64,000 nt of DNA from Dryococelus australis (Eukaryota > Arthropoda > Insecta > Phasmatodea > Phasmatidae). Under the pieces are notes generated by a model that was not told the origin of the DNA, did no database searches, and was given only the letters and a program-made list of their open reading frames with translations. Positions 18,145-63,329 of this stretch are shown here, in pieces. Location: the NCBI GenBank assembly GCA_029891345.1, contig CM056994.1:223773491-223837490 (forward strand), read 5' to 3'. The translations under genes and the position numbers were made by a program. Every line of letters begins with the position of its first letter. Within the stretch, counting starts at the first letter, position 1.

Positions 18145-19140
18145 GTAGTATATTTGCTGTTTCTTCACAATTTTTTAATCTAACCTATGAAAAATCACCC
18201 AATGTATGACGTGTTTGGCTGTTTCCTAAATATATCGTGTATTATAAGCGTTTTATACTTGTGTTTTCATAAAAGTAGCTTAATTTTGGTTCAATTGAAC
18301 TTTACTTATATTTTATCTATAAGCTATAACATTTAAGTCATAATTTATATGAACAAAAAGAGGTAGAAGATGGGTGTGTTGGCAATGCCTAGTAAGAAAT
18401 AGTTACTATGCGAAATACTTGAGTGCGCACTGTTACGAGAGCCCCGTCGTGCGCCCTGTTACGAAAAGCTCATGTTTACACCACGAGCAGGCAACGAGGA
18501 CACATATCAGTTTATAAAACAAAATCCAAACACAGAGCCAAAATTGCAATCTGTAAACTACCAAAGAAATGCGCCGAGGACGACGAAATATGTGGGTCCG
18601 GCAAACAATCCTTTGGCAAACTCCACCCACAGGTCACGACAGGGACCTATCACAATATTTTACGTCACTAACAGACGTGGTGGGGTGAGAAGTGTGGACG
18701 GAGCCACGAGGCCCAGGGAAGACTCAGTCGACGGTGTGGCAGCGAGCAGCGTGGCCAAGTGTCCAGGCAGCGGCGGCGGAGCCAGTGTGTCCAGGGTGCG
18801 AGACCTGGTGAGTCCTCCTGCCATGTATTAACTTAACTACTCTGAACTCCTATTCCCAATTCCACTTCATTCCATTGGCCTCGTACTTATCAGAGACACT
18901 TATAATTGTAAAAATGATAAGGTCTAGTAAACTTGGCTCTAGCCCATTTCTAGTTTAAGTAATTCTTATTTTAATTACCTACTTCCACTTCCCATCCTTT
19001 CATCCTCCACGCTTATGGTTTTCAAAACAAGGTTCATAACAGCAAGAATGCGCTGCGTTTTCCTTCTGGAGTAATTTTCCAGACTTTGTTGAGCTTTGTT
19101 TGCATGAGGTGGAGGAATGGATCTAAAGTAGAAAAATTTT
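18145..19140. mobile_element. Element B, left arm split by a solo LTR
   Basis: The left arm (GAAAAATCACCCAATGTATG, GTTTGGCTGTTTCCTAAATA, GGCAATGCCTAGTAAGAAAT, GAGTGCGCAC) is interrupted at 18430 by the LTR at 18431-19041. It resumes at 19042 with GCAAGAATGCGCTGCG and TTTGCATGAGGTGGAGGAAT, exactly where family B continues. The LTR is therefore younger than this B copy. Confidence 0.75.
18431..19041. mobile_element. Solo LTR, copy 1
   Basis: 611 bp beginning TGTTACGAG and ending CATAACA, so 5'-TGTTA...TAACA-3' as in LTRs. Flanked by GCAC (18427-18430) and GCAA (19042-19045), a 4-bp target duplication with one mismatch; the uninterrupted element B has a single GCAC here. About 95% alike by eye with 45633-46218 over the central ~400 bp. 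There is no gag-pol beside it, so it is a solo LTR left after recombination. The open frame inside it (18472-18831) is not a cellular gene. Confidence 0.85.
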
Positions 19141-19387: not shown

Positions 19388-19606
19388 CCGGCAGTACGGG
19401 AGATTGTAAACTCATCCGTTCGATGGAATTACTTACGTCCGCATTACTGCGCCATGTTAGTTTTCCAGGCACAGTAACAACCAAAATACTCACTTCGCGC
19501 AGTCGTGACGATGTCTTGAATGGCAGCTTCACGTGCCGGCTGTCTGGCTACGCATATCGCGTGCACAGTTAGAACGATTGGCCGGAAATGGTAATCAAAT
19601 GATTAA

Positions 19607-20024
19607 AGACTGTTCACGATAAAGTGAGCACTTTTGAAATCAACCTTAGAAAAAAGTCACTGCTCCTACCTGCATATATTTTAACGGATGAACTGAGTGA
19701 CATGCACCCAGTAAAGTTGGTAACGAGAATGGAAAGTGGTTCCATAGCTTAACTAGCTTAACGTCAAATATAAAGTGTTAGGTAACCATTTGTGTTCATT
19801 TTAATTACTTGTCTAACTTTCTGTTTTTTAATGCATTGAAGTGTAAAAATGAGCAGATTTGCAAAACGTTTTCTTTTTAATAATCTCACAGTTGCACTAG
19901 ACTAATGCACGAATAAAGTGACGAGGCCCAAGGCAATGTTAATTTTTCATAATGTGGAAGAATACACAATATGTAGTTCTTAAGCAGGGCTTTCAGAAGT
20001 GCTCATTTTACCGTGAATAGCCTA
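19607..20024. mobile_element. MITE family A, copy 2
   Basis: Left end GACTGTTCACGATAAAGTGA, right end CTCATTTTACCGTGAATAGC. Internal blocks are as in copy 1, including TGCATATATTTTAACGGATG and ATAAAGTGACGAGGCCCAAG. Flanks TTAAA/TATAA are compatible with a TA-rich target. Confidence 0.87.
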
Positions 20025-21826
20025 TAACAAGCACGTTTGATGGTACTGCATTTATGCCTTCACTTTCGAGCAGTGCCTTTTATTCGTATAAAATGTATGG
20101 TCTGTTGATAAACCCGGATGTAAACAAACAAGTTCTTCACTGTTCATCGCGTAACTTTGACATTTATATTTGCGATGATGAGTAATTGATGTCGGCCTAC
20201 CTCATCTTCAGGCTATTTGTACTGTTCGTGGCTGAACATCGCGACCTCGTGCAACGTCACGGCAATGGAAACTATTGTGCCCCCGAGGCTCTTCTCCAGT
20301 AAGAAAGATTCTGCGGTGGGTCGCCATTGCCTTCTGTGACATAAGCATCAACCACAGACCTGCCAACACTTACATAAACCTAGGATCGAGAGTGGAATCG
20401 AAGAGAAGATCCAACTCCTTTCATTATAGCACGACGGAGCTGTTGGTTTTCACTGATTAGGTAACCGGCATTAAACAAAGTCTTGTAGCATAATGTAACA
20501 TAGTTAGAGATGAAGGTTTATCGCAGGAAAGGTAGACTGTTTACTAGGATTCAACGTACTGTACACATTTCCGATAGTTTTCTCTCCTTATTAGCTGTCC
20601 TGAATGTATGAAGCTACTATCCGATTTAACTGGGTCAATGAGGCTTCTTATTCTCTAAAGCATAACGTTAATTCTTGGCCTGCCTAGAAGTTAGCCGAGT
20701 CAAAACCTTAGTCATTCAATCATAAAAGGATAAACCAGCTATAGTGTTATCAAAGATATGTTGGCTCAAAAAAACGGGCCATGTTTAAAAGTAATAACTA
20801 AAAATAAAAGCTAGATTTTTCTGAAAGCGAAACAATTAAATTATTCTCATAAAAATATTATTAAATATTTTTAAAAAATATTAATTTCTAGATTATGTTT
20901 TGATATCCTATTTTCCCAGAAATGGCCGTAACTTTTGTTTCTGAGGTTGATCATATGCACGGTGAGTTGTTGTTACCTGTAATCGCCTCACTGAAATAGG
21001 GAAAATTTATGGCGAGATCGAAAAAAAAAAAGCCTAATTTCGCAAACAGTAACAGCGGGCAATGAGTGGTATCTGAAATTTATGATACGTCAGAATTCCC
21101 AAAATACGGCTCTTACTCATTAAATTGCTAATACCATAGACAGAATATGGTGTAGGGAACGAATGGCGGTTGCGCAGTATCCAGTTTCAGAGTTCCTGCA
21201 TTAAATGACTTTATTGCCTATAGAACCATCGAAACCACGTGGTTACACAAATATATGATTTGGCATTCCAACACAGCTACGCTTACCGGATTATAATGCA
21301 CGTACGATAAATTCACGTTTAACATATTTCTTATATGAAATCGACAGTTATAGCAATTCGTAAGTAGACGATAGGGACGAACGCAGAAGACGAAATTCAT
21401 CGTACCTCGCTGTTTGTCTTCGCAAATAAAAATTGAATACCGAGATGTTTAATCAATGTAGGTTTATATCTCTACGAGTTGTAGTTGTGTGACGGACACA
21501 AGCATCAGCGGGATATCAAATAGTAACTTGTAAGGGCGTATTTACGTAGAGATATTTTCTACATTTTGCAAACCATTTCAGACAGGCGGTTATAACTTAG
21601 GAAGATATATTTTAAAATATCAAGAAACGTAGTAAGATAGGGTGACTAGTATCGACGGTTGGCTGAGGGGATAGACTCTAGCACCCAGCTCTCCACTATA
21701 TATCTAATTCAGTGATTTCAATCACTAGAATTATTTTACTGAATTTTCAGTTGATGTGCTCTTATCTATTAGCGAATCAGTGTAATGCACTGAGGTTTTA
21801 GTGCCAGGGCAGTGTAATAAAGTATA
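20025..21826. other. Unassigned DNA
   Basis: No gene, domain or repeat recognised. Short open frames at 20275-20460 and 21218-21400 have no family signature. Confidence 0.45.
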
Positions 21827-22235
21827 GGCTGTTCACGGTAAAATGAACACTTTTGAAAGCCCTGCTTAGAATCACGTTGTGTATTCTTCCGCCTTATGTA
21901 AGATTATTATTGTGATGGGCCTCATCACTTTATTCATACGTCGGTCAAGTGAAACTGTAAAATTATTAGAAAAGTAAATAGTTTACAAATATGCCAATTT
22001 TTACACTTCGATGCATTAAAAAACAACAGAAAGAGAGAGAAATAATTTAAATTATCACAAATGGTTACCTAACACTATTTATTAGACATTATGCTACGGA
22101 ACTACTTCCCATCCGTAGTTACCAACTTGACTGGGTGCATGTCACTCAGGGCGCCCGTTAAAATATATGCAGGTGGGGGTAATTACTTTTTTCTAAGGTT
22201 GATTTTAAAAAATGCTTACTTTATCGTGAACAGCC
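21827..22235. mobile_element. MITE family A, copy 3 (inverted)
   Basis: Reverse orientation relative to copies 1 and 2: CTTTATTCATACGTCGGTCA near the left end and GTTACCAACTTGACTGGGTG toward the right. Ends are GGCTGTTCACGGTAAAATGA and TTATCGTGAACAGCC. Confidence 0.87.
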
Positions 22236-22392
22236 TTTAGGAACCAGTGGGAATCGCTGTTTAATCGGTGAATACCAGCAGCTGAAATCATCAGCAACTA
22301 TAATTTCACTGATTCCAATGGATCTATTCAAACAGATCTGTAGTCAAATGTGCTGTTATGGTGCAGTTCTAATTGTTTCAATTATTTTAGGT

Positions 22393-45632: not shown

Positions 45633-46218
45633 TGTTACGAGAGCCCCGCCGTGCACCTTGTTTATAAAAAACAAAATCCAAACACAGAGCCAGAATTACA
45701 ATCAGTAAACCATCAAACAAATGCTCCGAGGATGACGAAATATGTGGGTTCGGCAAACTAAGTAAACCTTGAAGTAAGCGCAACAATCCTTCAGCAAACT
45801 CCATCCACAGGGCACGACAGGGACCTATCACAATATTTTACGTCACTAACAGACGTGGTGGGGTGAGAAGTGTGGACGGAGCCACGAGGCCCAGGGAAGA
45901 CTCAGTCGACGGTGTGGCAGCGAGCAGCGTGGCCAAGTGTCCAGGCAGCGGCGGCGGAGCCAGTGTGTCCAGGGTGCGAGACCTGGTGAGTCCTTCTGCC
46001 ATGTATTAACTTAACTACTCTGAACTCCTATTCCCAATTTCACTTCACTCCATTGGCCTCGTACTTATCAGAGTCACTTATAATTGTAAAAATGATAGTC
46101 TGGTGAACTTGGCTCTAGCCCATTTCTAGTTTAAGTTATTCTTATTTTAATTACCTACTTCCATTTCCCATCCTTTCATCCTCCACTCTTATGATCTTCA
46201 AACCAAGGAGCAAAACAC
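45633..46218. mobile_element. Solo LTR, copy 2, beside splice acceptor
   Basis: 586 bp from TGTTACGAG to AAAACA, flanked by a perfect 4-bp duplication CACG (45629-45632 and 46219-46222). Homologous to 18431-19041 along its length, with an indel in the first 150 bp. It lies in the elongase intron 23 bp from the acceptor, so the branch-point region of that intron must be LTR-derived or squeezed into 23 nt. Confidence 0.9.
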
Positions 46219-51083: not shown

Positions 51084-51830
51084 CAGATCTTTGACCTCAA
51101 AATTCCAAAAAAGTCTAAAGATTTAAAAAAAAAAATCCCAAAAAATTACCATAAAATTATTTTTAAATTGCTAAAAGTTTATTGTTAAAAATTATTTCAA
51201 AAATATTAAAATTATTTAAACACACATTTTTTTTTTTTTTACTTAAGTTTCCGAAGGTACCCCAGCTTCGCCGTTAATCACATTTGTTCCATCTTCAGTG
51301 GACGACTGACTCCCTCACCCCCACTCCCCTCACCTATACTCATTCCGGTATCTTGATTTTTCGTTCGTCATTTGTTTACATGCTATTGGAGGCAGCCATA
51401 TTTGTTTTTCGTACATAATTTTTTTATATGCTACTGGAGACGGAAATATTTGTTTAAAGATGTCACTGGAAGCTGCCATGTTGAGAGGCAGCCAGCTTGC
51501 TAGGTACAGTCCTCCATGTTTGTTTTTTGATCGTCACTTGTTTAATTTTGCCTCTCACCTTCATTCAGCTACCATATTAGATTTAATATGTTTACAATAC
51601 CTGTGTACCACCAGGTGACAACCACATTTGTTTATGTTTAAAGTATAGGTTGCTTTGTCGACCGCCATCAATCTCTGCGATTGGCTAATTACTCACCTCC
51701 ATATTGGATTCTATTCACAACACATATGTAGTATCGATCATACTGCCTGCTATCGGCCTGTACCGAATGGTGAGACTGACCATTCCTGCAAAGTACTTAA
51801 ATTGTCATATTTATTTATTTATTCTTAAAA
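51084..51830. repeat. Left terminal inverted repeat
   Basis: Outer end CAGATCTTTGACCTC pairs with GAGGTCAAAGATCAG at 58488-58503, and the inner end near GTCATATTTATTTATTTATT pairs with AATAAATATGACAAT at 57784. It includes internal direct repeats of a TTTACATGCTATTGGAGGCA-like word, seen two to three times between 51370 and 51500. Confidence 0.9.
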
Positions 51831-52050
51831 ATATAACGGGTAGGTTTTTAAAAATAAAACACAGTATATATCTTTACATAAAACTTATTGTACACATAGT
51901 AAAATATACAGGTTTATTAATCTTTTTTCGACGTTCACCGCTCGATGTCCGCCTCGACGACCCAGGAATTTTAGCAGGCAGAGAAACACCCTTCTGTTAT
52001 GGCTTTTTCAGCACCTCCTCGAACCTTGAAGCTGGCAATGCCCAATCGAC

Positions 52051-52901
52051 TCATCGTATGTCGCCCGTCTCCTTAAGTTCTTCGATGGTTGAAACTATCT
52101 CGTTGGTGTGGGAGTAATTACCAACACTTTTCGAAGCAAGCAGAAGCTGCAGCCTATCGACCAGCTTGTTCGGATCGTCCCAGAACACGTAGTCAATGTT
52201 CTTGCCGTCATCTATCTTCTTCAGGCCTTCGCCGCTTTTCAGTGCTAGGCAGCGGAAAAGTTCTGCAAGAATGTCGATTTTTTTTTGTGATCTTCGTCCT
52301 TATAAACACCTGTCTCGAGATCGTTATTTTGGTAAAGTGTGTGCGTGAGTTCGAGCAAAGTCTTGAATTCCAGCAGGTCGGATTCTGTAAACTCCCTGGG
52401 CTCCTTGCGAAATAGATGTTCGTATAGTCCGGGGGTTCCACGTACCTTGTTATTGCCAACACGTATGCTCCCACCTGGTAGAAACTCTCTTTCATCAGCA
52501 CGGAGGAACCGTCTATCGTTATGCCTGTATACAACGTACGTCGTATCATTATTACGAGATGTGTACAATCGTACGTACCGTCGAGCCAAAGCATTAGATT
52601 TCCGGGCTCTGTTCTGTAATTTCTTCTTGTGTGGAAAATCCGCAGCCGACCCATAGTCCTGATCTAGCTGTACTTCATCATGTTTTCGCTTCTTCAAAGG
52701 CTCAGCAGTATCGTCGATTTCGTTCTTCACGGCTACGGGTGCTCCATAGCTCTCCCTGAGTACAGCGAGACTACGAGTAATGGGATTTAAAATGTCTTCA
52801 TTTATATGGTTGCGTGAAATTTTGGCTCTCTTGGCGAGCAAATACTTTGAGCGGACAGACTGAATCACGCGATGTAGTTCGCTGGCAATGTCCGCCATCA
52901 T
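52051..52901 (-). pseudogene. DUF8207-type protein of the virus-like element
   Basis: Best-preserved gene of the element. From ATG at 52901 an uninterrupted frame of 218 codons runs to 52245. It has a basic, nuclear-localisation-like LKKRKHDE at residues 69-76 and a GTPGLYEHLFRKEP block at about 155-168, followed by SDLLEFKTLLELTHTLYQNN. I associate these with the DUF8207 family of arthropod virus-like elements. A frameshift in an A/T homopolymer near 52280 diverts the frame. The family's C-terminal block (IDYVFWDDPNKLVDRL) continues in another frame to a stop at 52051-52053. Function is unknown. A TATAAAAG motif lies at 52930-52937, about 30 bp before the ATG. Confidence 0.75.
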
Positions 52902-52929
52902 ACTGAATAAAAATTCTCACTGTCGCTCT

Positions 52930-52937
52930 CTTTTATA
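52930..52937 (-). promoter_or_regulatory. TATA box before DUF8207-type gene
   Basis: TATAAAAG on the minus strand followed by GAGAGCGACAGTGAG and the start codon at 52901. The same octamer recurs before other genes of this element. Confidence 0.55.
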
Positions 52938-52940
52938 GGT

Positions 52941-53425
52941 TTAGTCGTGAGTCTCTGCCAACATACTTTCGATCTTGCTCAGACGTTCGCTGTAATTTTG
53001 AATATCTGTTTTCGTGGCCACGTGGAAAATCGAGTTATCGAACGTGTGTGTCATATATCCTTCCAGGTTTTTCAGACTCTCTTCATTTTGTGCAGATGCT
53101 ATATTCAATCTGTAGATAATTTTCTTTTCACTTGTCACGTTCTCGTCCATGGCCACCATATCACGGACGATCTCCCTTTTCACACGCTCCACCTTCGTTC
53201 CGAGCTCGGACAGGTAGTTCGAAAGAATGCGTTTTGTTCAGCCAACATTCTGTGCAGTTCCGAGATGATATCATTACCAGTTTCGAGGACGAAATGTTTA
53301 GTAGCAGTATCCCCAAATCGTTCAGGTTCACCAACGTTTCGAATTATTCTTCTACCAGCATCACGAGTTCCATCATCTCCTAGTACGAGACAACCACCAG
53401 CGTCGTCTTTATGATGGCATATCTT
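52941..53425 (-). pseudogene. Coiled-coil/fibre-like protein remnant
   Basis: Two minus-strand pieces in different frames. The upstream piece (about 53200-53425) contains DAGRRIIRNVGEPERFGDTA followed by TKHFV. This resembles the 'RIxNVGxPxxxxDAATKxYV' signature of viral tail-fibre and attachment-type proteins. The downstream piece (52941-53192) is an 83-residue, charged, heptad-like segment ending SERLSKIESMLAETHD, predicted by eye to form a coiled coil. A frameshift near 53200 separates them. It sits between the ATPase and the DUF8207 gene in the same direction. The fibre role is an inference. Confidence 0.5.
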
Positions 53426-53446
53426 GAGGCTACTCTGTCCTAATTT

Positions 53447-54310
53447 CTATATGCTGTAACTCATTCTCGAAGGGCCAGCGATGAACTGATCAAACCCGCT
53501 TTTGTACCGTCCATTTTATAGGGGCCAGCTCTTTACGATCGTCAAAAATCCGTATTTATCTTTCCTGCACAATGCACACATACGTTTGAAATCTGATAGC
53601 GTCATGTCCGTATTTACATGATCGTCGTAAACGTGCCGCAAATTAGTGTTCTCCATGCGAAACAGCACCGACATGCTTGCGTTGTCGCGAAGCATCTGTT
53701 TGGGTATACGCGAATAAGTCTGTCCGAGGTACACACAGTCCACATTCGCATGCCGTCCCATGCTAAAGTATTCTTGAATACAAGTTTGTTTCTCGCAGGC
53801 AATGTGTCGTCGAAGACAAATGTCGAGTTTCGCAGTGCTTCGTCCGGAGGTACAATCGCTTCATTATCACCGCATGGGAAATAAACCATGCCTTCCACGG
53901 CTTGCAGTACTCGTGTCAATCGCCAGTGTTTCGGTTGCTGGAGTGATTTTGAATATAGGTTTACGTTCTCGAAACAAAGGCCATTACCTCATCCAGCAGG
54001 CTCAGTAGGACGCATGTCTTGCCACAGTTTGATGGTCCCGCGTTGATGCACCGCACTTTAAATGGAAATAGACTTCCATGCCACGATTCGTGGGAGATAT
54101 ATTCATATTCAGCATGAATTCGTTTATAATACATACATTACCACTGCAATCATGTGGCGGTGGTGGGGGTGATGGTTGTGTTGGCAGTGGAGAACCTATG
54201 CTGCAAATTTTAGAATTTCTCTTTAAAGCATCACATCGAGAAAACAGTTTCTCGCAGAATTCACACTGAAATGTCATATTGGAATATGCGATACGTCCGT
54301 ACTGTTCCAA
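53447..54310 (-). pseudogene. A32-like genome-packaging ATPase, frameshifted
   Basis: Minus-strand gene in at least three frames. The N-terminal ATG at 54310 leads to a C2H2-like finger (FQCEFCEKLFSRCDALKRNS, with the expected first zinc-binding histidine replaced by asparagine). A Walker A loop GPSNCGKT lies at about 54010-54035. A Walker B-like FVFDD lies near 53810-53825. An MGRHANVDCVYLGQTYSRIP block near 53700-53760 is typical of the sensor region of A32/FtsK-type viral packaging ATPases, followed by RDNA and YDDHVNTDM. The C-terminal NGRYKSGFDQFI-type end stops at 53447-53449. Shifts lie near 54040, 53960, 53790 and 53540. In life it would have pumped DNA into capsids. Confidence 0.82.
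53513..53520 (-). promoter_or_regulatory. TATA-like site inside ATPase 3' end
   Basis: TATAAAAT on the minus strand, about 90 bp ahead of the fibre-like remnant. Position and similarity to the other TATA sites of the element suggest a promoter, but the site also encodes the ATPase C-terminus. Confidence 0.35.
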
Positions 54311-54390
54311 GTCTAGAATGATACTGAAAGGAAAATGTATAAAAGGGCTGTATTTATACGATTCTCGCTCAGTTATCCGAAATATCTCGA
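54311..54390. promoter_or_regulatory. Divergent promoter region of the element
   Basis: Spacer between the leftward ATPase (start 54310) and the rightward minor-capsid gene. TATAAAAG at 54338-54345 on the plus strand is followed by GGGCTGTATTTATACG. All genes to the left run leftward and all to the right run rightward from here. Confidence 0.5.
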
Positions 54391-54960
54391 AGAGGTAAGA
54401 CCGTAGCTGGGAATTGGGTTATCGATACACTGAGCTGTACATTCCCGGATACAGGTTCTGCTGGCAGGAAGCAAGCTAGCTAGCTAAAAGGCTATCACGA
54501 AACGAGACAGGCATAAACACCGTGGATGAGGCACGCAAGCAGCATGACATCGCCTATTCCCTGCACAAGGATCTGCACGCCAGACACCGGCCAGAAAAGA
54601 TACTTGCACGGAAGGCGGACGAAATAAGCAAAATCAGATTCTGGTCTCGATAAAAAATTTGACGAACGCCAAATGGAAGATGGACATGGGCAATAAGAGT
54701 GATAAGGTACAAGTAAATAGAAAAGCAGTTACAAAAGGAAGAAAAGCCGCCAAGTCTAAGGAAATATCTACAGGTGGATTTTTTCCATTGCTTTGCCTGC
54801 ACTCGGGGCTCTCGGAGGCCTAATTGGAGCCACGAGTGGTATTGTCCGACCGTCAACACAGCATCGAACGAACGGAAGTAGTTGGCCGAGGCACAATGAC
54901 ACAATGAAAACATGGAAGCTATCGCCATGGGTAAAAAAAATGGGCAAGGCATTTACCTAA
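54391..54960 (+). pseudogene. PLA2-like minor capsid protein remnant
   Basis: Plus-strand pieces in several frames. Near 54440-54470 a frame reads ELHIPGYRF-like text, equivalent to the segment before the calcium loop. At 54518-54650 it reads TVDEARKQHDIAYSLHKDL, carrying the HDxxY catalytic motif of parvovirus-type phospholipase A2, followed by RHRPEKILARKADEIS. A hydrophobic glycine-rich stretch ALGALGGLIGGATSGI lies at 54790-54845 in a shifted frame, like membrane-active minor capsid peptides. A GQGIYLRLY-type C-terminal motif follows near 54945. Several frameshifts and stops occur. In related viruses PLA2 and such helices aid endosomal escape. Confidence 0.72.
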
Positions 54961-54978
54961 GGCTATATCCAGTAGGAG

Positions 54979-55400
54979 GTGGAAGTGTGCAAAAGCGATA
55001 CAGCGGAAGAAACAATAGTGAAATCTCTACCTAAACGAGCACTCACAAATGTGGATTTGGAACGGTTGGCGTGCAAATTGAAAACACCTAATTTTAGAGG
55101 AGTGTTTATGAGAGATGATTTGCCCGATAAATCTAAGAGACGCGAATGTGCAGTAAATAATCTGGATACAAAAGCAAAGCCCGGCAAGCACTGAATAACG
55201 TACGTAAAAAAGGGCAAACACTCAGACTATTATGATAGTGTTGATAATTTGCATCCTCCACCCGAATTGCGCAAGAATTTGATATACACCAAAATTAATA
55301 CATTTATGAAACGGAGCAGCTGCCTAACACGTGGAACTGCGGACATTTGAGCCTTAACTCCCTGATTCGCTCGTACAAGTAATTGTATAAAAAGGCTATA
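54979..55400 (+). pseudogene. Adenain-like cysteine protease remnant
   Basis: The frame 54979-55194 has LTNVDLERLACKLKTPNFRG, VFMRDDLP, then VNNLDTKAKPGKHW with the candidate catalytic His. After a frame change YYDSV (acidic residue position) and PPPELRKNL follow near 55230-55275. WNCGHLSL, with the candidate nucleophile Cys, appears near 55335-55360. Order His, Asp, Cys and the 'NFRGVFMRD' block fit adenovirus/Polinton-type (C5/C48) maturation proteases, which cleave capsid precursors. Frameshifts near 55190 and 55310 and a stop near 55380 inactivate it. Confidence 0.75.
55386..55394 (+). promoter_or_regulatory. TATA box before penton-like gene
   Basis: TATAAAAAG, 37 bp upstream of the ATG at 55423. 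The same type of motif precedes other genes in the element. Confidence 0.55.
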
Positions 55401-55422
55401 CACCATAAGGAAACTATCAGTC

Positions 55423-56111
55423 ATGTCGATAATGCTTACCTTGACGGGTCGTAGCTCCGAGCTGCGTGCAATACATTTTCCGTCACTCGATCTGGAGGGG
55501 GAATGGAGCATAAGCCTTGTCAATTTTAAAACCTACAATGCGATTTCGAACGTTGATAAAAAAAACTGCAAGCTGTACCTCTTAAAAAGTGGTAATATTT
55601 CCCAAGAAGTTTCGCTGATCGTTGGCTCATATGAAATAGACGACATTGCAAGGCACACTGAAGATTCGCTGTCCCCCGACACAGAATTCGAAGTATGTAG
55701 AAATCCCAATACTATGAAGAGTGTTATTAAATGCAATGAAGATATCGACATTATGATACCGGATACTATCGGACCTATGCTGGGGTTCGAGGCACACATT
55801 TATGAAGCTGGTAAAACATACGTGTTGTCGCAGCTCATGAACATTTTGCCAGTCAATGTGATACGAATAACCGGCAATTTGGTGAGCTGTATATACTCAA
55901 TGGCAGGCCGAGCAATACGCTGCACTAATATTAGCCTGTGGTCCCTTCAGGCTATAAACTGGTCGTAGCACCACAAATCATCATTTATGTCCCAGCCGTC
56001 GCACAGAGAGCACACGAGGTAGTTGTGACAGTCGTCGACCAGCACGGAGAGTTGGTAAACTTTCGAAATGAAGAAATCACCCTATGCCTGCATTTACGAA
56101 GATGGGAATAA
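55423..56111 (+). pseudogene. Putative minor capsid/penton-like protein
   Basis: From ATG at 55423 the frame reads MSIMLTLTGRSSELRAIHFP, then GEWSISLVNFKTYNAISNVD, a GSYEIDDIARH block near residues 67-77 and DTIGPMLGFEAHIY near residues 112-126. A frameshift near 55895 ends it at residue 181; the family's C-terminal part (VPSGYKLVVAPQIIIYVP and FRNEEITLCLHLRRWE) continues in another frame to the stop at 56109-56111. It is a beta-rich protein that regularly neighbours the double-jelly-roll capsid gene in arthropod elements. The penton or minor-capsid role is inferred from position and size. Confidence 0.65.
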
Positions 56112-56131
56112 GATTTACGCCGACCAGAAGC

Positions 56132-56139
56132 TATAAAAG
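56132..56139 (+). promoter_or_regulatory. TATA box before major capsid gene
   Basis: TATAAAAG about 105 bp upstream of the capsid ATG at 56244, just past the stop of the preceding gene. Confidence 0.45.
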
Positions 56140-56243
56140 AATGTGTCGTGCAAAACCTACCATTAGTACGCCAAAAACCTCCAAGGAGTTAACACGTGTT
56201 ATGGAGATTATCCTCTGCAGTCTCGGCTATGAGGTCGATCGCC

Positions 56244-57444
56244 ATGGAAGACTTGCTAAACTACGAAGAGCCAGCTGTTTTCGAAGAGAGTATAACGAAG
56301 GTGGAACATCATGCGTACCAGCCATTCCTGATCGGGCCATACACACTACCATTGGATGTTGGAATAGCGGTCCAACACCAAGATATCTGCACTCTTCCTT
56401 GCCAGTCTTTTCTGCGAATTAGGGGGACTCTAACAAAAGAAGATGGGTCAAATCCAGCATCGACGAAAATAACGAGCAATTGAATTCTTCACCTGATCTA
56501 TAGCATCGCCTACTTTATCAATGGTACCGAGGTGGACCATTCGCGAGATGTGGGCATAACCTCAAATATCAAAAATTACCTTTCGCTCACGCCGAATGAA
56601 CTGTCTGCAGCCAAGATGGCAGGCTGAGGAATCGAAGATGGCTACAGTGTTCCCATTTATGCCGAAGGCAGGTTCGAAGCATGTATTTTGCTCTCCATGC
56701 TATTGGGATTTGCCGAAGACTACAAACGAATTACCTTAAATTCGAAGCAGTAGCTGATGATATTGCTAGCCAATACACATGTGGACACAATAGTTGGTAT
56801 GGTAGAAAAGCTGGAGGCAGTTGAACTGAAACTACAGTCTATCGAATGGATGTTATCTCATGTGCAGTTGAGCATTGCAGAATGTGGAAGGTGGTAAAAA
56901 CATCGCTGTAGCTTTTAGGTCGTGGAGCCTGGAAACATACTCCAGATTGCCAGTAACCCAGCACATCAACTGGATGGTGAAGATCAGTTTTGCTTTTGAG
57001 AAACCGAGGTACATCATTGTTGGGCTACAGACCGGAAGACAGGACAATGTAAGAGTGAGCCGTTCGCAGTTCGACACGTCAAATATAAAATGACAAAATA
57101 TTTTTGAATAGCGAAAGCTACCCGTGCATTGTCATGAACATAAATTTTGTAAATAGATAGTGCCTGCGGGCATATCGGTTGTACTCCCAATTTCAAACTG
57201 TATATTATGGGCGCACCCAATCCTCGCTATTGAGCCCTGATACGTTCAAGAGTTTGGCCCCGCTCATGGTATTCGATGTGAGTAAACAGGACGAGCGTAT
57301 TACCTCCAACGTGATCGACTGCAGGATCGAATTCTTTATACATGGAAATATTCCTGCCCCAACACGTACGCGTTCTGCCTGATACTTCACGGCCGGTTTG
57401 TGTATTGCAATTGTCGAGACAAGACCCTCAAAATACTTCCGTGA
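56244..57444 (+). pseudogene. Double-jelly-roll major capsid protein, broken
   Basis: The ATG at 56244 begins MEDLLNYEEPAVFEESITKV, then VAVQHQD-like (here IAVQHQDICTLPCQSFLRI) and RGTLTKEDG. Later pieces, in changing frames, read NGTEVDHSRDVGITSNIKNY (56520-56580), LLGFAEDYKRI (56700-56735), AFRSWSLETYSRLPVTQHIN (about 56909-56970), EKPRYIIVGLQTGR (57000-57040), a YYGR-LLSPDTFKSLAPL block (57205-57270) and a final ILHGRFV-type segment to the stop at 57442-57444. These blocks, in this order, characterise the double-jelly-roll capsid family of arthropod Polinton-like elements. Full length about 400 codons; at least four breaks. Confidence 0.8.
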
Positions 57445-57667
57445 GCGCATCTGACTGTCCGCACAGCTTCAAGGTTCGAGGAGGTACTGAAAAGTTAAAA
57501 CGGGTGTTTCCAAGCACGCTTCAATTCCTGGGTCGTTGAAGCGACATCGAGCGGTGAACGTCGGAAAAAGATTAATAAACCTGTATAATTTACTATGTTT
57601 ACAATAAATGTTATGCAAAGAGATATGCTGTGTTTTAATTTAAAGAACATACCCCATATGTATGTAA

Positions 57668-57781
57668 ATGTGTGTGTATATATATTTATGTATGTATATA
57701 TATTTATGTATGTATATATATATTTATGTATGTATGTATATATATATATTTATGTATGTATATATATTTATGTATGTATAT
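57668..57781. repeat. TATGTATGTATATATATTTA minisatellite
   Basis: Five or so units of about 18-24 bp between the capsid gene and the right terminal repeat. The overlapping open frames here are low-complexity artefacts. Confidence 0.9.
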
Positions 57782-58503
57782 AAGAATAAATATGACAATT
57801 TTAGTACTTTGCAGGAATGGTCAATGTCATCATTTGGTACAGGCAGATAGCAGGCAGCATAATCGATACTACATATGTGTTGAGAATAGAATCCAATATG
57901 GAGTTGAGTAATTAGCAAATCACAGAGATTGGTGGCGGTCGACAAAGCAAACTATACTTTAAACACACAAACAAATATGGTTGTCACCTGGTTGCTGTGC
58001 AACCCTCGCTGGAGCCAGCCACAGCTTGGTGGTACACATGTATTGTAAACATATGAAATCTGATATGGTAGTTGCACGAAGGTGAGACGTACAGTATTAA
58101 ACAAATGACAATAAAAACAAACATGGCTGACTGCACGTAGTAAGATGGCTACCTCCCAACATGGCAGCCTCCAGTAACATGTATAAACAAATCATGTATG
58201 AAAAAAGAAAGATGACTGCCTCCAGTAGCATGTAAACAAATGACGAACGAAAAAATCAAGATGGCCGAATGAGTATAGGTGAGTGGAGTTGGCGTGAGAG
58301 CCAATCGTCTGCTGGGGATGGAAAAAATGTAACGAATGGTAGAGCTGGGGAGACCTTAGAAAATGTAAGTTTAAAAATATACATAAATTTTAAAATAGTT
58401 TTTAATATTTTAAAAATAGTTTTTAATAATACATTTTTATAAATTTTTAATAATATTATTTTGGTTTTTTTTTTTGGGGATATGTTTGTGAGGTCAAAGA
58501 TCA
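57782..58503. repeat. Right terminal inverted repeat
   Basis: Mirror of 51084-51830. Examples are TACTTTGCAGGAATGGTCA, AGCAGGCAGCATAATCGATA, TATGGTTGTCACCTGGT, CATGTAAACAAATGACGAAC and TGAGTATAGGTGAGTGGAGT. Similarity falls in the A/T-rich outer 150 bp, but the last 15 bp match again. Confidence 0.9.
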
Positions 58504-58620
58504 GGGTCAAGGGTCATAGGTCCTGCTCTCCTGACCCTGGGTCACAGATCCCGGTCTCCTGTCTGACCCTGGGTCGCTGATCCCTCTCGCCGGAGTCACG
58601 AGTCCACCTCGCCTGTCTGG
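58504..58620. repeat. GACCCTGGGTC repeat outside right TIR
   Basis: Imperfect repeats of about 45 bp with CTCCTGACCCTGGGTCACAG and CTGTCTGACCCTGGGTCGCT. No counterpart flanks the left TIR. Confidence 0.6.
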
Positions 58621-59967
58621 GAAAATGGGAATTTTTTAGAGTATTTTGGTTTATTTGGAGGAAAAAAAGGGAAATTTTGAGGGAAAAAAATATGGCGGAC
58701 GGGTGGCTCCGGCTCTGATGCCCGATGTCCTTGCACGTCATCCATTTCCCTACTACTACCACTACCACCACTACTACTTTCATGATTGTTCACTTTGTGC
58801 GCCACGTTAAATTTTCAGATGGGTTTTTTAATGTAACACGTCTCTTGCTTTCGCTGTTAATCTAAACACTATGCTGCCAGAATACACATTATTTATCTTC
58901 CCACTATTTCTCGATTAGAATAACGATCTCTGGTTTTTTCTGTCTGTATAATCGAGTACATGTTCAAGAAGTGCAATATGGTACTTTTTTTTCGCTCAGG
59001 AAAAATCATTTAAATTTTAGTGTTGAAAACAGAACACACATTATCCTTAACAGTTTATCGTTTAAACAGATTCATTTTTTTTGAACTTATAAAGTCACGT
59101 TCTTGGTTTTCATAATTTTTTCCGTCTGGTTAATACCTGTTTGTTTAAAGCTCTGTATATTGCTAGGTTTAATGCTTTATTCAAAACTGTAAAAATAGTG
59201 TAAGATGGTATATATTTTCTTATTTCCCAGTGCCGCCATGAAGGGTTCTAATATTACTTCTCGTGTTACGTTTCTTCTCAGAGTTCGTCTAATTTCCCCA
59301 GCGTACATTATTATTTGTCTTAATTTTCTTTTCAAGTGCGTAGTCTCATCCAACTTCAATGGTAATGCGGCGAAAGATAAACTTTGTGGCGATTCTTTAA
59401 AAAAATTCTTACTGCTTTTTTCAGTGACGTTACAGCAGCACCCTTGTTTAAACTATTCATTGGTTTCACAGCTACATCAAACACAGATTTTTCATAGGAA
59501 CTCATTTATCGTATTTGTGTAACCCACATGTAATATGTGCTGTATTCAGGCCATTACTAAATCATTCAAATTTGGTAGTTCTTATGCAATTTACGGGCAG
59601 CAGAATAAGTTTTTGGAATGTTGATTCATCTCTAGTACCAAACCAACGATTTTAGAGTAACGCGTTTTTATACCTGAAATAAAAATTTCTAATTATAATT
59701 TTCTGTAACTTGACCGTCATCGATAGCATTTATGATGCTCCAAGATTTATTGGAAAAACTTATTTAGCAAAAATATGATTAGCATTATAAGGAGGCATAC
59801 TGTAAAATAATGCGTAGCTTATTTTCTTGTGCAAAGAAAGTCTTATGACATTATTTTATCTGCTAGTGTGTTCGATGTGCGTTCGGACCAGGACACTGAC
59901 AGGCACCGAGCAGATACTATAGACTTAGCTTGTGGCTTGGAGACTGCACAATAATGAGCTGACTTAC
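58621..59967. other. Intron DNA, nothing recognised
   Basis: AT-rich apart from a GC-rich start. Frames at 58514-58783 (minus) and 59205-59522 (plus) show no family signature; the former includes a polyvaline stretch from an ACC/ACT microsatellite at about 58750-58776. Confidence 0.45.
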
Positions 59968-60024: not shown

Positions 60025-60220
60025 CTGAAACATCATTACAGCAGTGTTTCCCAAACGTGCAAGAAACACAGATACTGAATAGAGTTAGTTACCAGGCGAT
60101 TCCACAAGGCCAAAAGTCGTCTCAGTTAATAATATTTACTCATAGAAAATTCTTGGCTAGTTTTGACGCCATGGTTTTATTACTACATGCAAAATACTAT
60201 TTACGATGAAATTAATTAAA

Positions 60221-60631
60221 GCCTGTTCATGACAGTGAAAACTTTTGAAATCAGCCTTAGCAAAAGTCACTGGCTCTGCCTACATATATTTTAACAGATG
60301 CACTGAATGACATGCATCCAGTAAAGTTGGTTAACGAAGAATGGAAATAGTTCCATATCTTAACGTCGAATAAAAAGTTTTAGGTAACCATTTGTGATCA
60401 GTTAAATTATTTAATTCCCTTTCTGCTTTTTGAAAGCATAAAAGTGTAAAAATGAGCTGATTTTTATAATATTTAGTTTCCTAATAATTTAACAGTTTCA
60501 TTTGAAGGACACCTGAATAAAGTGCTGAGGCCCGTGGCAATGTCAATTTTACACAAGGTTGAATAAGACACAACTTGCATACAAGATCTTAAGCAGGGCC
60601 TTCAAAATTGCTTATTTTACCATGAACGGCC
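60221..60631. mobile_element. MITE family A, copy 5
   Basis: Same order as copies 1 and 2: GCCTGTTCATGACAGTGAAA, CATATATTTTAACAGATGCA, AGGTAACCATTTGTG, GTGCTGAGGCCCGTGGC, ending TTATTTTACCATGAACGGCC. Confidence 0.87.
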
Positions 60632-61007
60632 TATAAAAATTTTAACTTGGTTAAATGTTTATGTAACTTAAGGCATAAATAGTTTAAGTAGCAATGACAC
60701 AGAGTGTGATGACATTAATTTGCGGGAAACATCTGTCAACAATTACACAAATAATGTACTTAAGAAATGCACTGCTGGACTGTTAAAATCTCTGCACAAT
60801 GAAGGACGCGCCTAAATGGCCTCACATTGTGGGAATGCGTGGAGTTCGGTAGCGCAATGAAGTGATTACTTGTTCAGCGGAGTGGCGCAGGTAGGTGCGA
60901 CAATGGCGACGCTGAACAGCAGTGTGTAAGTGGAAGTCCGGGAGCCGCTGAGAAGCAGTGACACCGTGTTTCCCCGCTGTTGATGCGCACAGGTGGAGAG
61001 AAGAAGC

Positions 61008-61807
61008 ATGCCACGTCGTAGAACACGACAACCATACAAACAGGTTTCCGCCTTTGACTGTTAGGAAAATTGTGGCCTATCAGAATAGGGGATTATCCTA
61101 ATACGAAATTGGTTCACGTGTTGGAAGAAATACAATCACAGCGAAGCACATTGGGTCCAGGAGGGACGGGCTGAGGGACGTGCAGGAAGTCGACGACCCC
61201 GTCGCACAAACGAGTGCCCCGATTTATTCGTGAATTACAGCAAACAATTTTTAAGGTCGCAGCTGCTCTCAATTAAAAAGAAGCCGTATTATGATTGCTT
61301 CGAGCTTTCTACCCTGCCAACGACCGTAGGTCGATCCCCTCGACTGAACAAGGCGTGTTTATGTAGCTTGAGGTTGGGCGGCGTGTCTGGACTGCGTCCC
61401 CACTAACGCATTCGCACGCTGGTGGCAGTGGTGTGAAAACTGTCTAGAAGACAAAAGAGGGGAGTCTCGCACTTCGCGCGCACGTGATTTTAGATTCACA
61501 CGTTATTGTTGTCCCCTATATTAAGGGCCAGCCTGGGGCCCTGTAATAAAAGGAGAATGCGCGACCGTATGTGATACACATCGTCTGACGGCTCCTGCAT
61601 GAACACTATGTCACAGTGCTGTATTGGCTTGCGCGTTCACCAGATCTCTCGCTTATCTAAAACGGCCCATGATCGGACGATATTGACCTACTACTGGATA
61701 TCCACGGCCACAACCGATGTACTTTTCGCACGCATCGGAGCAGCATGGGCGGAGATACCCCAGACGGACATCTAAAGTCTCTTCCTCTCATTACCTTGTC
61801 GTGTAAA
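61008..61807 (+). pseudogene. Tc1-like transposase pseudogene
   Basis: ATG at 61008 starts MPRRRTRQPYKQVSAFDC, then after frame changes EGRAEGRAGSRRPRRTNE near 61160-61215, the N-terminal helix-turn-helix region of Tc1 transposases. Near 61720-61800 a frame reads FARIGAAWAEIPQTDI, stop, SLFLSLPCRVKAV, the family's C-terminal segment. The middle contains only partial matches. A MITE A copy begins at 61808, where the last residues would be. Confidence 0.75.
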
Positions 61808-62220
61808 GGCTGTTTAAGGTAAAGTGAGGACTTTTGAAATCAATATTAGAAAAATCACTGTCCCTGCCTGTATATATTTTAACGGGCGAACTGAGTGACA
61901 TGTGCCCAGTAAAGTTAGCAACGTTGAATGGAAAGTAGTTCCACATCTTAACGTTTAATTAAAAGTGCCAGGTAACCATTTGTAATATCTTAAATTATTT
62001 CTTTCACTTTTTGTTCTTTACTGCATCCAAGTGTAAAAATTAGCATATTTTCAAAAGCTTTTCTTTTGTAAAAATTTCACAGTTGCTCTTGACCGACGCA
62101 TGAATAAAGTGACGAGGCACATGGCAATGCTAATTTTACATAAGGCGGAAGAAGACACAATTTTCATGCGAGTAGATCTTACGCAGGGCTTTCGAAAGTG
62201 CTCATTTTACCGGAACAGCC
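61808..62220. mobile_element. MITE family A, copy 6
   Basis: GGCTGTTTAAGGTAAAGTGA at the left, CTCATTTTACCGGAACAGCC at the right. All internal family blocks are present. Inserted at the 3' end of the Tc1 pseudogene. Confidence 0.87.
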
Positions 62221-63329
62221 TATAGCAACAGTTACTGCTGGCCGCGGTGGGACCACGCAGTCCTATGTTCTTTATGTTATTCCGTGCTGCAAGTGTAATG
62301 TCACCAGTGTATATGGTTCTTTTGCCTATTGAATCTGTTTGAGATAACTCACGTCGTTCTTGGTGCTGTAATTTAAATAGTAAGCAGTATATTATTGGAA
62401 TTACAGTTTTTCGAACGCATATGTAACTGTAAAAAATGCAAGCATCGAAGATAAAATTTAAAAAATATGGCACATGAAATGGTTCCTTATATTTGACTAC
62501 ATAAGGCAAAGTAAAAATATTTATATAAGATACTGGTATTTTACCTAGGGGTAATTTTTTAGGTCACATACTTGTATCATAAGAGATCGTGTATGCATGC
62601 AATTTTGGCCGTACTTACATACTACTTGATAATGTCACTCCTATGTACACCAAATAGGAAAACGCTTCCTTCTCAACCAAAAATTTCAAACCACATGCTT
62701 TGTGAAAGCATCTACTACATAAGTAACTCGTAACACGCATTTTTCTAAGGGTGGTAAACAATCGTAATGGAAAAATTGGTGTTGCGTTTAACAATTATTT
62801 ATTTGACTGCGTTAAAAATGATAAGTACTCTTTTTGATGAAGACGGAGATGTCATGTCTTATGTTATTGCAGAACATATGAAGAGAATTCTTTTTAACTA
62901 CATCTGCAACTGCTACCCTTGGTGAATTAATTTATTGTTAACTCAGCAATATTTTATCCAGTTTTCTTTGTATTATGATGCACGGGTGTTTACTATACAC
63001 TTCAGTTTCAATGGCTTTTTCTTGCTTGCTTATGATATTTCCGTGTTTAGCTACGTTGACATTTTATAATATGTACTTACTGTATCAAAAACTTTACAAT
63101 TTTGATGTAGTGAACAATGGTATAACGCCATAGTCGCCAGTATCATGTATCGTTCGTTGCACGATAGGTTTATGTTGTTCCCTTGTAAAGCGCGCTTGAG
63201 CTCATTGTGATGAAAATGTTAAATTGAGTGGAAGAGAGAAAGAATACTATTGCCGTACAAGGGGTTGTTATAGGCGAAGTCAATGCGCGTCATCGAAAAA
63301 TTTAATAAGAGTAATTTTACTTATAGCTG
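62221..63329. other. Unassigned DNA
   Basis: AT-rich, with no gene or repeat recognised. The minus-strand frame ending near 62207 begins in unique sequence and has no elongase or other signature. Confidence 0.45.

What the first reader, a model, noticed from the sequence alone, without database searches (positions are those of the whole stretch)
51084..58503. Compact TIR-bounded virus-like element with capsid and packaging genes but no polymerase or integrase
Between ~730-bp inverted repeats I can place a major capsid protein, a penton-like protein, a maturation protease, a PLA2-like minor capsid protein, a packaging ATPase, a fibre-like protein and a DUF8207-type protein in 5.9 kb, with almost no spare room. 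Known Polintons and adintoviruses are about 15 kb or more and carry protein-primed DNA polymerase B and usually an rve integrase. Either this copy lost them by internal deletion, or it belongs to a compact lineage that encodes virions and borrows replication from a helper. The tight packing and symmetrical divergent arms argue slightly for the second.
Basis: partly seen in the sequence, partly recalled or inferred. Interest (0 to 1): 0.88.

Follow-up and report, generated by a model that had tools for sequence, protein, structure and literature searches.

The report
Capsid-only Polinton lineage without polymerase
This is a dead copy of a small virus-like element that carried shell-building genes but no DNA polymerase of its own, and it belongs to a family that kept those shell genes working while it spread through its host's genome, probably by borrowing copying enzymes from larger relatives.

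Summary
The element is real but longer and more decayed than described. It runs from about 51086 (left end truncated) to about 58757, with arms of at least 950 bp. It holds broken genes for a double-jelly-roll capsid protein, packaging ATPase, protease-like, penton-like, PLA2-like, coiled-coil and DUF8207-like proteins, with no room for PolB or integrase. It is not a one-off deletion: of eight copies read (window included), seven have both arms and the compact order, and none shows PolB. Six facing pairs among 100 listed exact sites of one TIR word are 5.9-7.6 kb apart. Changes shared by three or more copies have N/S 1.53, singletons 2.95 (neutral 2.7-3.3), so the genes were constrained while the family spread. 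A sister subfamily keeps an rve integrase; the window's lost it. Elsewhere in the genome PolB and MCP lie together; two such MCPs, read, belong to another clade (46-54% identity). One roughly 16-kb element with the same 24-bp TIR word at both ends has PolB and rve but no capsid hit in the 10 kb read. Best reading: a polymerase-less Polinton lineage that encoded capsid proteins and was replicated in trans. Helper dependence is inferred, not shown.

The parts
51086..52034 (+). Left inverted arm (TIR); about 360 outer bases including the terminus are missing
   Evidence: Arm alignment; comparison with the C3:220.72 Mb copy, whose terminus is AGTAGTAGGG
52051..52916 (-). DUF8207-like gene, broken (pieces 52248-52916 and 52054-52299)
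52944..53446 (-). Coiled-coil-like small protein gene, broken, function unknown
   Evidence: Conserved in place in the other compact copies read; only Pfam hits below cut-off
53516..54418 (-). Packaging ATPase gene with N-terminal C2H2-like stretch, broken
   Evidence: Pox_A32 E 0.0013 for 53519-53860, below cut-off; relative L041:6844-7644 E 2.5e-5, above cut-off
54548..54960 (+). PLA2-like / minor capsid-like gene, broken
   Evidence: Matches in place in L043-L047; no hit at Pfam cut-off
54976..55365 (+). Adenain/Ulp1-like maturation protease gene, broken (3' limit inferred)
   Evidence: Relative L022:34-480 hits Peptidase_C5 E 0.0023 and C48 E 0.0034, both below cut-off; relative L026 piece no hit
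55366..56140 (+). Penton-like protein gene, broken (3' limit inferred)
   Evidence: Piece 55366-55968 matches between protease and MCP in other copies; no Pfam hit; single-sequence model useless, pLDDT 32
56193..57500 (+). Double-jelly-roll major capsid protein gene, broken
   Evidence: PF21738 E 2.4e-14 (56872-57090) and 1.2e-13 (57161-57379)
57464..58757 (-). Right inverted arm (TIR) with a TATG-type microsatellite at 57656-57782; terminus ACTACT at about 58752-58757 (a triplet repeat just outside leaves the exact end uncertain by some 20 bases)

Best explanation
The window holds a dead copy of a compact Polinton lineage. The lineage has Polinton-type terminal repeats and capsid-assembly genes but no DNA polymerase; one subfamily keeps an rve integrase after DUF8207, and the subfamily of the window copy has lost it. 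Living members most likely made capsid proteins and were copied by protein-primed PolB, and for the rve-less form integrated by integrase, supplied in trans by larger Polintons of the same genome with compatible terminal repeats. Shown: architecture, multiplicity of the TIR, own MCP clade, constraint during spread, PolB/rve elements in the genome, one with the same 24-bp TIR word at both ends. Inferred: helper dependence, packaging, movement between cells or hosts.
For: Seven of eight copies read, window included, have both arms and the same order; their interiors were read without gaps. PolB pieces hit 0 of 42 sequences at E 1e-4: window, L003, L006, L009-L047. A 30-base TIR word has 1141 places at up to 3 mismatches, reversed control 0. 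Its 100 listed exact places give six facing pairs, 5.9-7.6 kb. By my count, 22 of 24 compact-clade MCP loci have the TIR downstream in the expected orientation, against 0 of 6 others. The 24 MCPs form one clade (100/99) apart from two PolB-linked MCPs. MCP singletons N/S 2.81, shared by three or more 1.26, p 3.5e-5; all genes 2.95 vs 1.53, p 4.6e-9. rve in a compact copy: PF00665 E 2.1e-11, and hits in two more. PolB+rve element with the TIR word at both ends. PolB and MCP together elsewhere.
Against: No helper interaction was observed. Of 12 facing pairs one is 15.0 kb with PolB and rve and one is 11.8 kb and unread. Many of the 1141 TIR places may be solo arms or TIR-only elements. Constraint could partly predate the loss of PolB. 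MCP copies were the best Pfam scorers. The protease shows no drop (shared 9/26, N/S 2.89), PLA2/minor has no shared class, ATPase and coil have few shared changes, and the second count has 10 shared stops.
Confidence: 0.7

Rival explanations
1. A one-off internal deletion of a 15-20 kb Polinton; the compact form of this copy is an accident without descent.
For: The copy is broken. Larger PolB-bearing elements exist in the genome.
Against: The same compact order in six further two-armed copies; the arm follows DUF8207 within a few tens of bases in five other rve-less copies, L003, L006, L039, L041, L046; an MCP clade of its own.
Confidence: 0.03
2. A non-autonomous family amplified through its terminal repeats alone; the capsid genes are passengers without function.
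For: TIR-only elements exist: L004 at C8:96.47 Mb, and by position C1:67.16 Mb. Every gene set read has breaks somewhere.
Against: Changes shared by three or more copies have about half the N/S of singletons, in MCP, penton and DUF8207 and, on few changes, coil and ATPase.
Confidence: 0.14
3. A divided genome: the compact element is the capsid segment and the PolB+rve element with the same TIR word is the replication segment of one virus.
For: C8:7.654-7.670 Mb has PolB and DUF8207-rve and no capsid hit in 10 kb of about 14 kb interior. C1:151.72 Mb has PolB and no capsid hit in 18 kb read.
Against: Four PolB-MCP links by position, two with rve as well; the PolBs of three are 77-81% and of one 57% identical to the C8 one. 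The two capsid-less copies could be deletions; capsid-less Polintons are known (PMC4028283, passage).
Confidence: 0.1
4. The lineage replicates with an unrecognised protein of its own (coiled-coil or DUF8207 protein), not with a helper.
For: Neither protein has an assigned function; both are conserved in place.
Against: DUF8207 also precedes rve in the same open frame in another family, which fits an integrase partner; Pfam shows no polymerase or helicase in either.
Confidence: 0.03

Closest known systems
Polintons / Mavericks
   Same: DJR MCP, packaging ATPase, protease-like gene, TIR with (AGT)2-type end motif (motif as given in PMC8097293, passage); three sister copies carry rve
   Different: About 7-8 kb instead of 15-20 kb (PMC4028283, passage); no PolB in the copies read; no integrase in the window's subfamily
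Adintoviruses (as defined in PMC11071296, section 16)
   Same: Virion-gene set; rve with a chromodomain hit below cut-off in a sister copy
   Different: The defining PolB is absent; no PolB hit in 42 sequences
Meldvirus genomes with adenovirus-class virion genes but no recognisable PolB and integrase (PMC11071296, section 16)
   Same: Virion genes without PolB and integrase
   Different: One shown there pairs alpha-adintovirus virion proteins with a primase-helicase and a tyrosine recombinase (figure legend passage); here no replication gene was found, and copies are integrated in numbers
Capsid-less Polintons (PMC4028283, passages)
   Same: Polinton modules can be lost as a block
   Different: The converse loss: there capsid genes, here the polymerase

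Membership tests
Polinton / Maverick | Protein-primed PolB | tested here: not met
   No PolB hit in the window or in the other compact copies read
Polinton / Maverick | rve integrase | tested here: not met
   Absent from the window copy; present in sister compact copies L043, L045, L047
Polinton / Maverick | Double-jelly-roll MCP | tested here: met
   PF21738; sister copy L015 E 1.7e-88
Polinton / Maverick | FtsK/A32-type packaging ATPase | tested here: met
   Below cut-off in the window, above cut-off in its relative L041
Polinton / Maverick | Cysteine protease | tested here: inconclusive
   Peptidase_C5 and C48 below cut-off in L022; no hit for L026
Polinton / Maverick | Penton-like minor capsid protein | tested here: inconclusive
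   No Pfam hit; structure model too poor
Polinton / Maverick | TIR end motif (AG)3 or (AGT)2 | tested here: met
   AGTAGTAGGG at the window's right end and at both ends of the C3:220.72 Mb copy; AGTAGTAGG at the left end of L046
Polinton / Maverick | 6-bp target site duplication | tested here: inconclusive
   Left end missing in the window; C3 copy GTATTT vs GTATGT, 5 of 6
Polinton / Maverick | Length 15-20 kb | tested here: not met
   About 7.7 kb here; six facing pairs of the first TIR word 5.9-7.6 kb
Adintovirus | PolB with N-terminal OTU-like domain | tested here: not met
   No PolB
Polinton-like virus (PLV) | Alternative replication gene (e.g. S3H fusion, Tlr1-like helicase; as in PMC11071308, passages) | tested here: not met
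   No such domain in Pfam scans of pieces of 60 aa or more, and the interior is filled by the genes listed
Satellite / helper-dependent virus | Multiplication needs a helper's enzymes | not testable with these tools
   Needs an experiment; only a shared 24-bp TIR word was seen

The most novel reading that the evidence does not exclude
A divided-genome Polinton: capsid-encoding compact elements and capsid-less PolB-plus-integrase elements with the same terminal repeats are two segments of one virus, packaged by the shell genes of the first and replicated and integrated by the second.
Probability: 0.1. Interest if true: 0.92.

Novelty: new variant of a known kind. Interest (0 to 1): 0.68.

Why it matters
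Polintons are usually treated as self-synthesising because they carry PolB and integrase. A family in high copy number that dropped the polymerase yet kept capsid genes under constraint would mean that shell proteins with compatible ends are enough to persist. That makes a satellite strategy, known from virophages, testable in this host, and it bears on whether Polintons form virions: constraint on capsid genes in an element that cannot replicate itself is hard to explain without particles or a shared capsid pool.

Tried and rejected
Rejected: single deletion accident (other copies share the form). Rejected: 58503 as the right end. An early idea that the inner arm copies the MCP 3' end was replaced: in copies with rve the inner arm matches the rve C-terminus. 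An early bipartite reading was weakened by PolB-MCP links. The first lists showed no PolB near MCP, ATPase or TIR words (0 of 109 PolB loci); a search with the C8-type PolB then found 4 links. Led nowhere: protein homologue search, viral contig scans, PDB sequence searches, PHROGs, Rfam, single-sequence penton model, 6.6 kb beside a young PolB copy (L055). Literature: searches; none of the titles and starts of abstracts listed describes a capsid-encoding, PolB-less, multi-copy Polinton family in an animal genome. I read passages, abstracts or single sections, no whole paper; Starrett 2021 was not held.
Full report
What is there. The window lies in a 3.4-Gb genome (G000:C2:223773491-223837490); no call names the host. 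Between 51086 and about 58757 lie two inverted arms around about 5.4 kb of gene remnants. Left half, minus strand: DUF8207-like, coiled-coil-like, packaging ATPase. Right half, plus strand: PLA2-like, protease-like, penton-like, MCP. They are broken by stops and frameshifts. The solid domain call in the window is the MCP (PF21738); the ATPase is below cut-off. Less broken relatives give the MCP at E 1.7e-88, the ATPase above cut-off, and one of two protease pieces below cut-off.

True ends. The C3:220.72 Mb copy has arms of about 1275 bp, 78.5% alike, both starting AGTAGTAGGG, which fits the (AGT)2 end motif given for Mavericks (PMC8097293, passage). The window's right arm reaches this motif at about 58757; its left arm begins about 360 bases too late. 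The blocks of the window's two arms are 79-92% alike. If arms are alike at insertion, which I assume, the insertion is not recent.

Other copies. I read eight copies, window included. C2:46.18 and C3:220.72 were chosen because their TIR matches face each other at short distance; C7:77.43, C9:73.58, C6:175.90, C1:390.49 and C14:68.57 were chosen from the 30 MCP loci. Seven have both arms: all but C14, whose left end was not in the stretch read. The gene order is the same where genes are present. C2:46.18 lacks ATPase N-end to penton, C9:73.58 has a 2-kb insertion in the left arm, and in C3:220.72 about 3.6 kb between ATPase and MCP show no match to my pieces. PolB pieces found nothing at E 1e-4 in 42 sequences: window, L003, L006, 30 MCP loci L009-L038, L039-L047; the 30 MCP loci reach only about 1.5 kb each side and include six of other MCP clades. 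Of these 30 (of 126 scored places, of 18149 first-look candidates) 24 form the compact clade. By my count, 22 of the 24 have the TIR downstream in the expected orientation (not L029, L036), against 0 of the other 6.

Numbers and spacing. A 30-base TIR word has 1141 places at up to 3 mismatches, control 0; 100 exact places were listed. A 24-base word has 102 exact places, 100 listed. Facing pairs within 30 kb: six of the first word at 5.95-7.61 kb; six of the second at 0.31, 0.40, 1.43, 3.21, 11.84 and 15.05 kb. Of these 12, I read letters only inside the 0.40-kb and, in part, the 15.05-kb pair; the C7:174.47 Mb pair has a listed MCP between its ends. A longer form of the first word, all 89 places listed, gave four pairs by my count, all among the six. 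The 1141 places are arms, not elements, and may include solo arms.

Integrase. A stretch shared by L043, L045 and L047 between DUF8207 and the arm is an rve integrase (L047: PF00665 E 2.1e-11, chromodomain below cut-off; hits in L043 and L045). Its C-terminus lies in the arm, so the opposite arm beside the MCP carries that remnant too: hits in L009, L011, L014, L017, L018, L024, L025, L030 and L038. In copies without rve (window, L003, L006, L039, L041, L046) the arm follows DUF8207 within a few tens of bases, and L006 and L041 show the remnant there. This reads as one ancestral deletion that spread. By position, three listed rve places lie 0.65-0.85 kb from a TIR word. In a divergent family DUF8207 precedes rve in one open frame (L053; rve E 3.8e-6, below cut-off).

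Polymerase carriers. In the first two lists no PolB lay within 16 kb of a listed MCP, ATPase or TIR word: 0 of 109 PolB loci against 126 MCP, 149 ATPase and 200 TIR places, where ATPase-MCP gave 5 links, MCP-TIR 9 and ATPase-TIR 4. The C8-type PolB list gave four PolB-MCP links within 25 kb, same strand, PolB 3-13 kb downstream; chance expectation 0.28. rve-MCP gave 11 links and rve-PolB 22, of which 16 have the orientation of an ordinary Polinton at 4.8-16.4 kb; two places have rve, MCP and PolB, and nine rve-MCP places have no listed PolB. These are positions only; I take the three-way places to be full Polintons. Two PolB-linked MCPs (L058, L059) were read: they fall with L028 in another clade, 46-54% identical to compact MCPs, while compact copies are 77.9% identical at the median.

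The same-TIR PolB element. The 15.05-kb pair at C8:7.654-7.669 Mb holds PolB and DUF8207 followed by rve, and no capsid, ATPase, penton or protease hit in 10 kb of about 14 kb interior; one antisense match of E 5e-4 to a stretch of L010 lies over PolB and I take it as chance. It carries the exact 24-base TIR word at both ends. Its arms were not read. A helper with compatible ends is thus plausible. The divided genome is kept as the most novel reading; PolB-MCP links in the same PolB family speak against an obligate split.

Selection. Among 24 compact MCPs, pairwise dN/dS has median 0.55 (276 pairs); the eight pairs of smallest dS have 0.73-1.0. Changes in one copy: 155 synonymous, 436 nonsynonymous, 37 stops, N/S 2.81 against a mutational expectation of 2.87. 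Changes in two copies: 60, 129, 3, N/S 2.15. Shared by three or more: 66, 83, 0, N/S 1.26; Fisher p 3.5e-5, single against shared. Over all genes with window pieces: single 569/1677 (84 stops), two 232/525 (17), three or more 170/260 (10), p 4.6e-9. By gene, single against shared N/S: MCP 2.95 and 1.58, penton 3.16 and 1.39, DUF8207 3.11 and 1.67 (24 shared changes), coil 2.77 and 1.4 (12), ATPase 2.68 and 0.4 (7), protease 2.62 and 2.89 (35); PLA2/minor had no shared class. Columns with fewer than 20 or 7 copies, or whose commonest base was below 60%, were dropped. So copies decay neutrally after insertion while their sources were constrained. Limits: copies were chosen by Pfam score; shared changes are not independent, so p-values are guides; part of the constraint may predate the loss of PolB; the shared stops do not fit strict constraint.

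Mechanism. Shown: compact form, spread, constraint, loss of rve in one subfamily, PolB/rve carriers in the same genome. Inferred: PolB from a carrier primes at the compact ends and copies the element; its own or a carrier's integrase inserts it; its capsid proteins package it or feed a shared pool.

Literature. Polintons are given as 15-20 kb with pPolB and rve, and nine MCP-less elements also lacked protease and ATPase (PMC4028283, passages). Virion genes without recognisable PolB and integrase are mentioned among meldviruses (PMC11071296, abstract, passages, section 16). PMC11071308 and PMC8097293: abstract and passages, and passages. In six searches I saw no description of a capsid-encoding, PolB-less, multi-copy Polinton family in an animal genome among listed titles and starts of abstracts; that is a limited check.

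Noticed in passing
51357-51455 and 58167-58263: Both arms hold about two tandem copies of a 48-49 bp unit with GGAGGCNGCCATNTTTG-like cores, resembling YY1-type sites (recalled); similar short motifs occur in loci of other Polinton-type elements (L048, L052).
   Followed up: partly
G000: C12:120762429, C9:117551656, C1:332487209, C1:217783374, C3:369746157, C1:128160747: A PolB family with long open frames (five of these six without stops), with open 369-aa rve frames 2.8-5.8 kb away facing it, and no listed PF21738 MCP near; it looks recently active.
   Followed up: partly
L048/L049 (G000:C1:151.718-151.736 Mb) and L027/L051/L052 (C1:379.970-379.990 Mb): One element has PolB and no capsid hit, the other capsid genes and no PolB hit; they share arm and right-hand sequence.
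   Followed up: partly
L004 (G000:C8:96.47 Mb); by position C1:67163742-67164079: Elements with almost nothing between the arms.
   Followed up: no
L053:4333-5550: DUF8207-like sequence and the start of rve (below cut-off) lie in one open frame, suggesting DUF8207 is an integrase partner.
   Followed up: partly
2321-2746, 19604-20030, 21823-22239, 60217-60635, 61804-62228: Five copies of a roughly 430-bp dispersed repeat, 76-81% alike.
   Followed up: no
18510-19041 and 45660-46217: A repeat of about 550 bp, 90% alike, each copy with a short tandem array.
   Followed up: no
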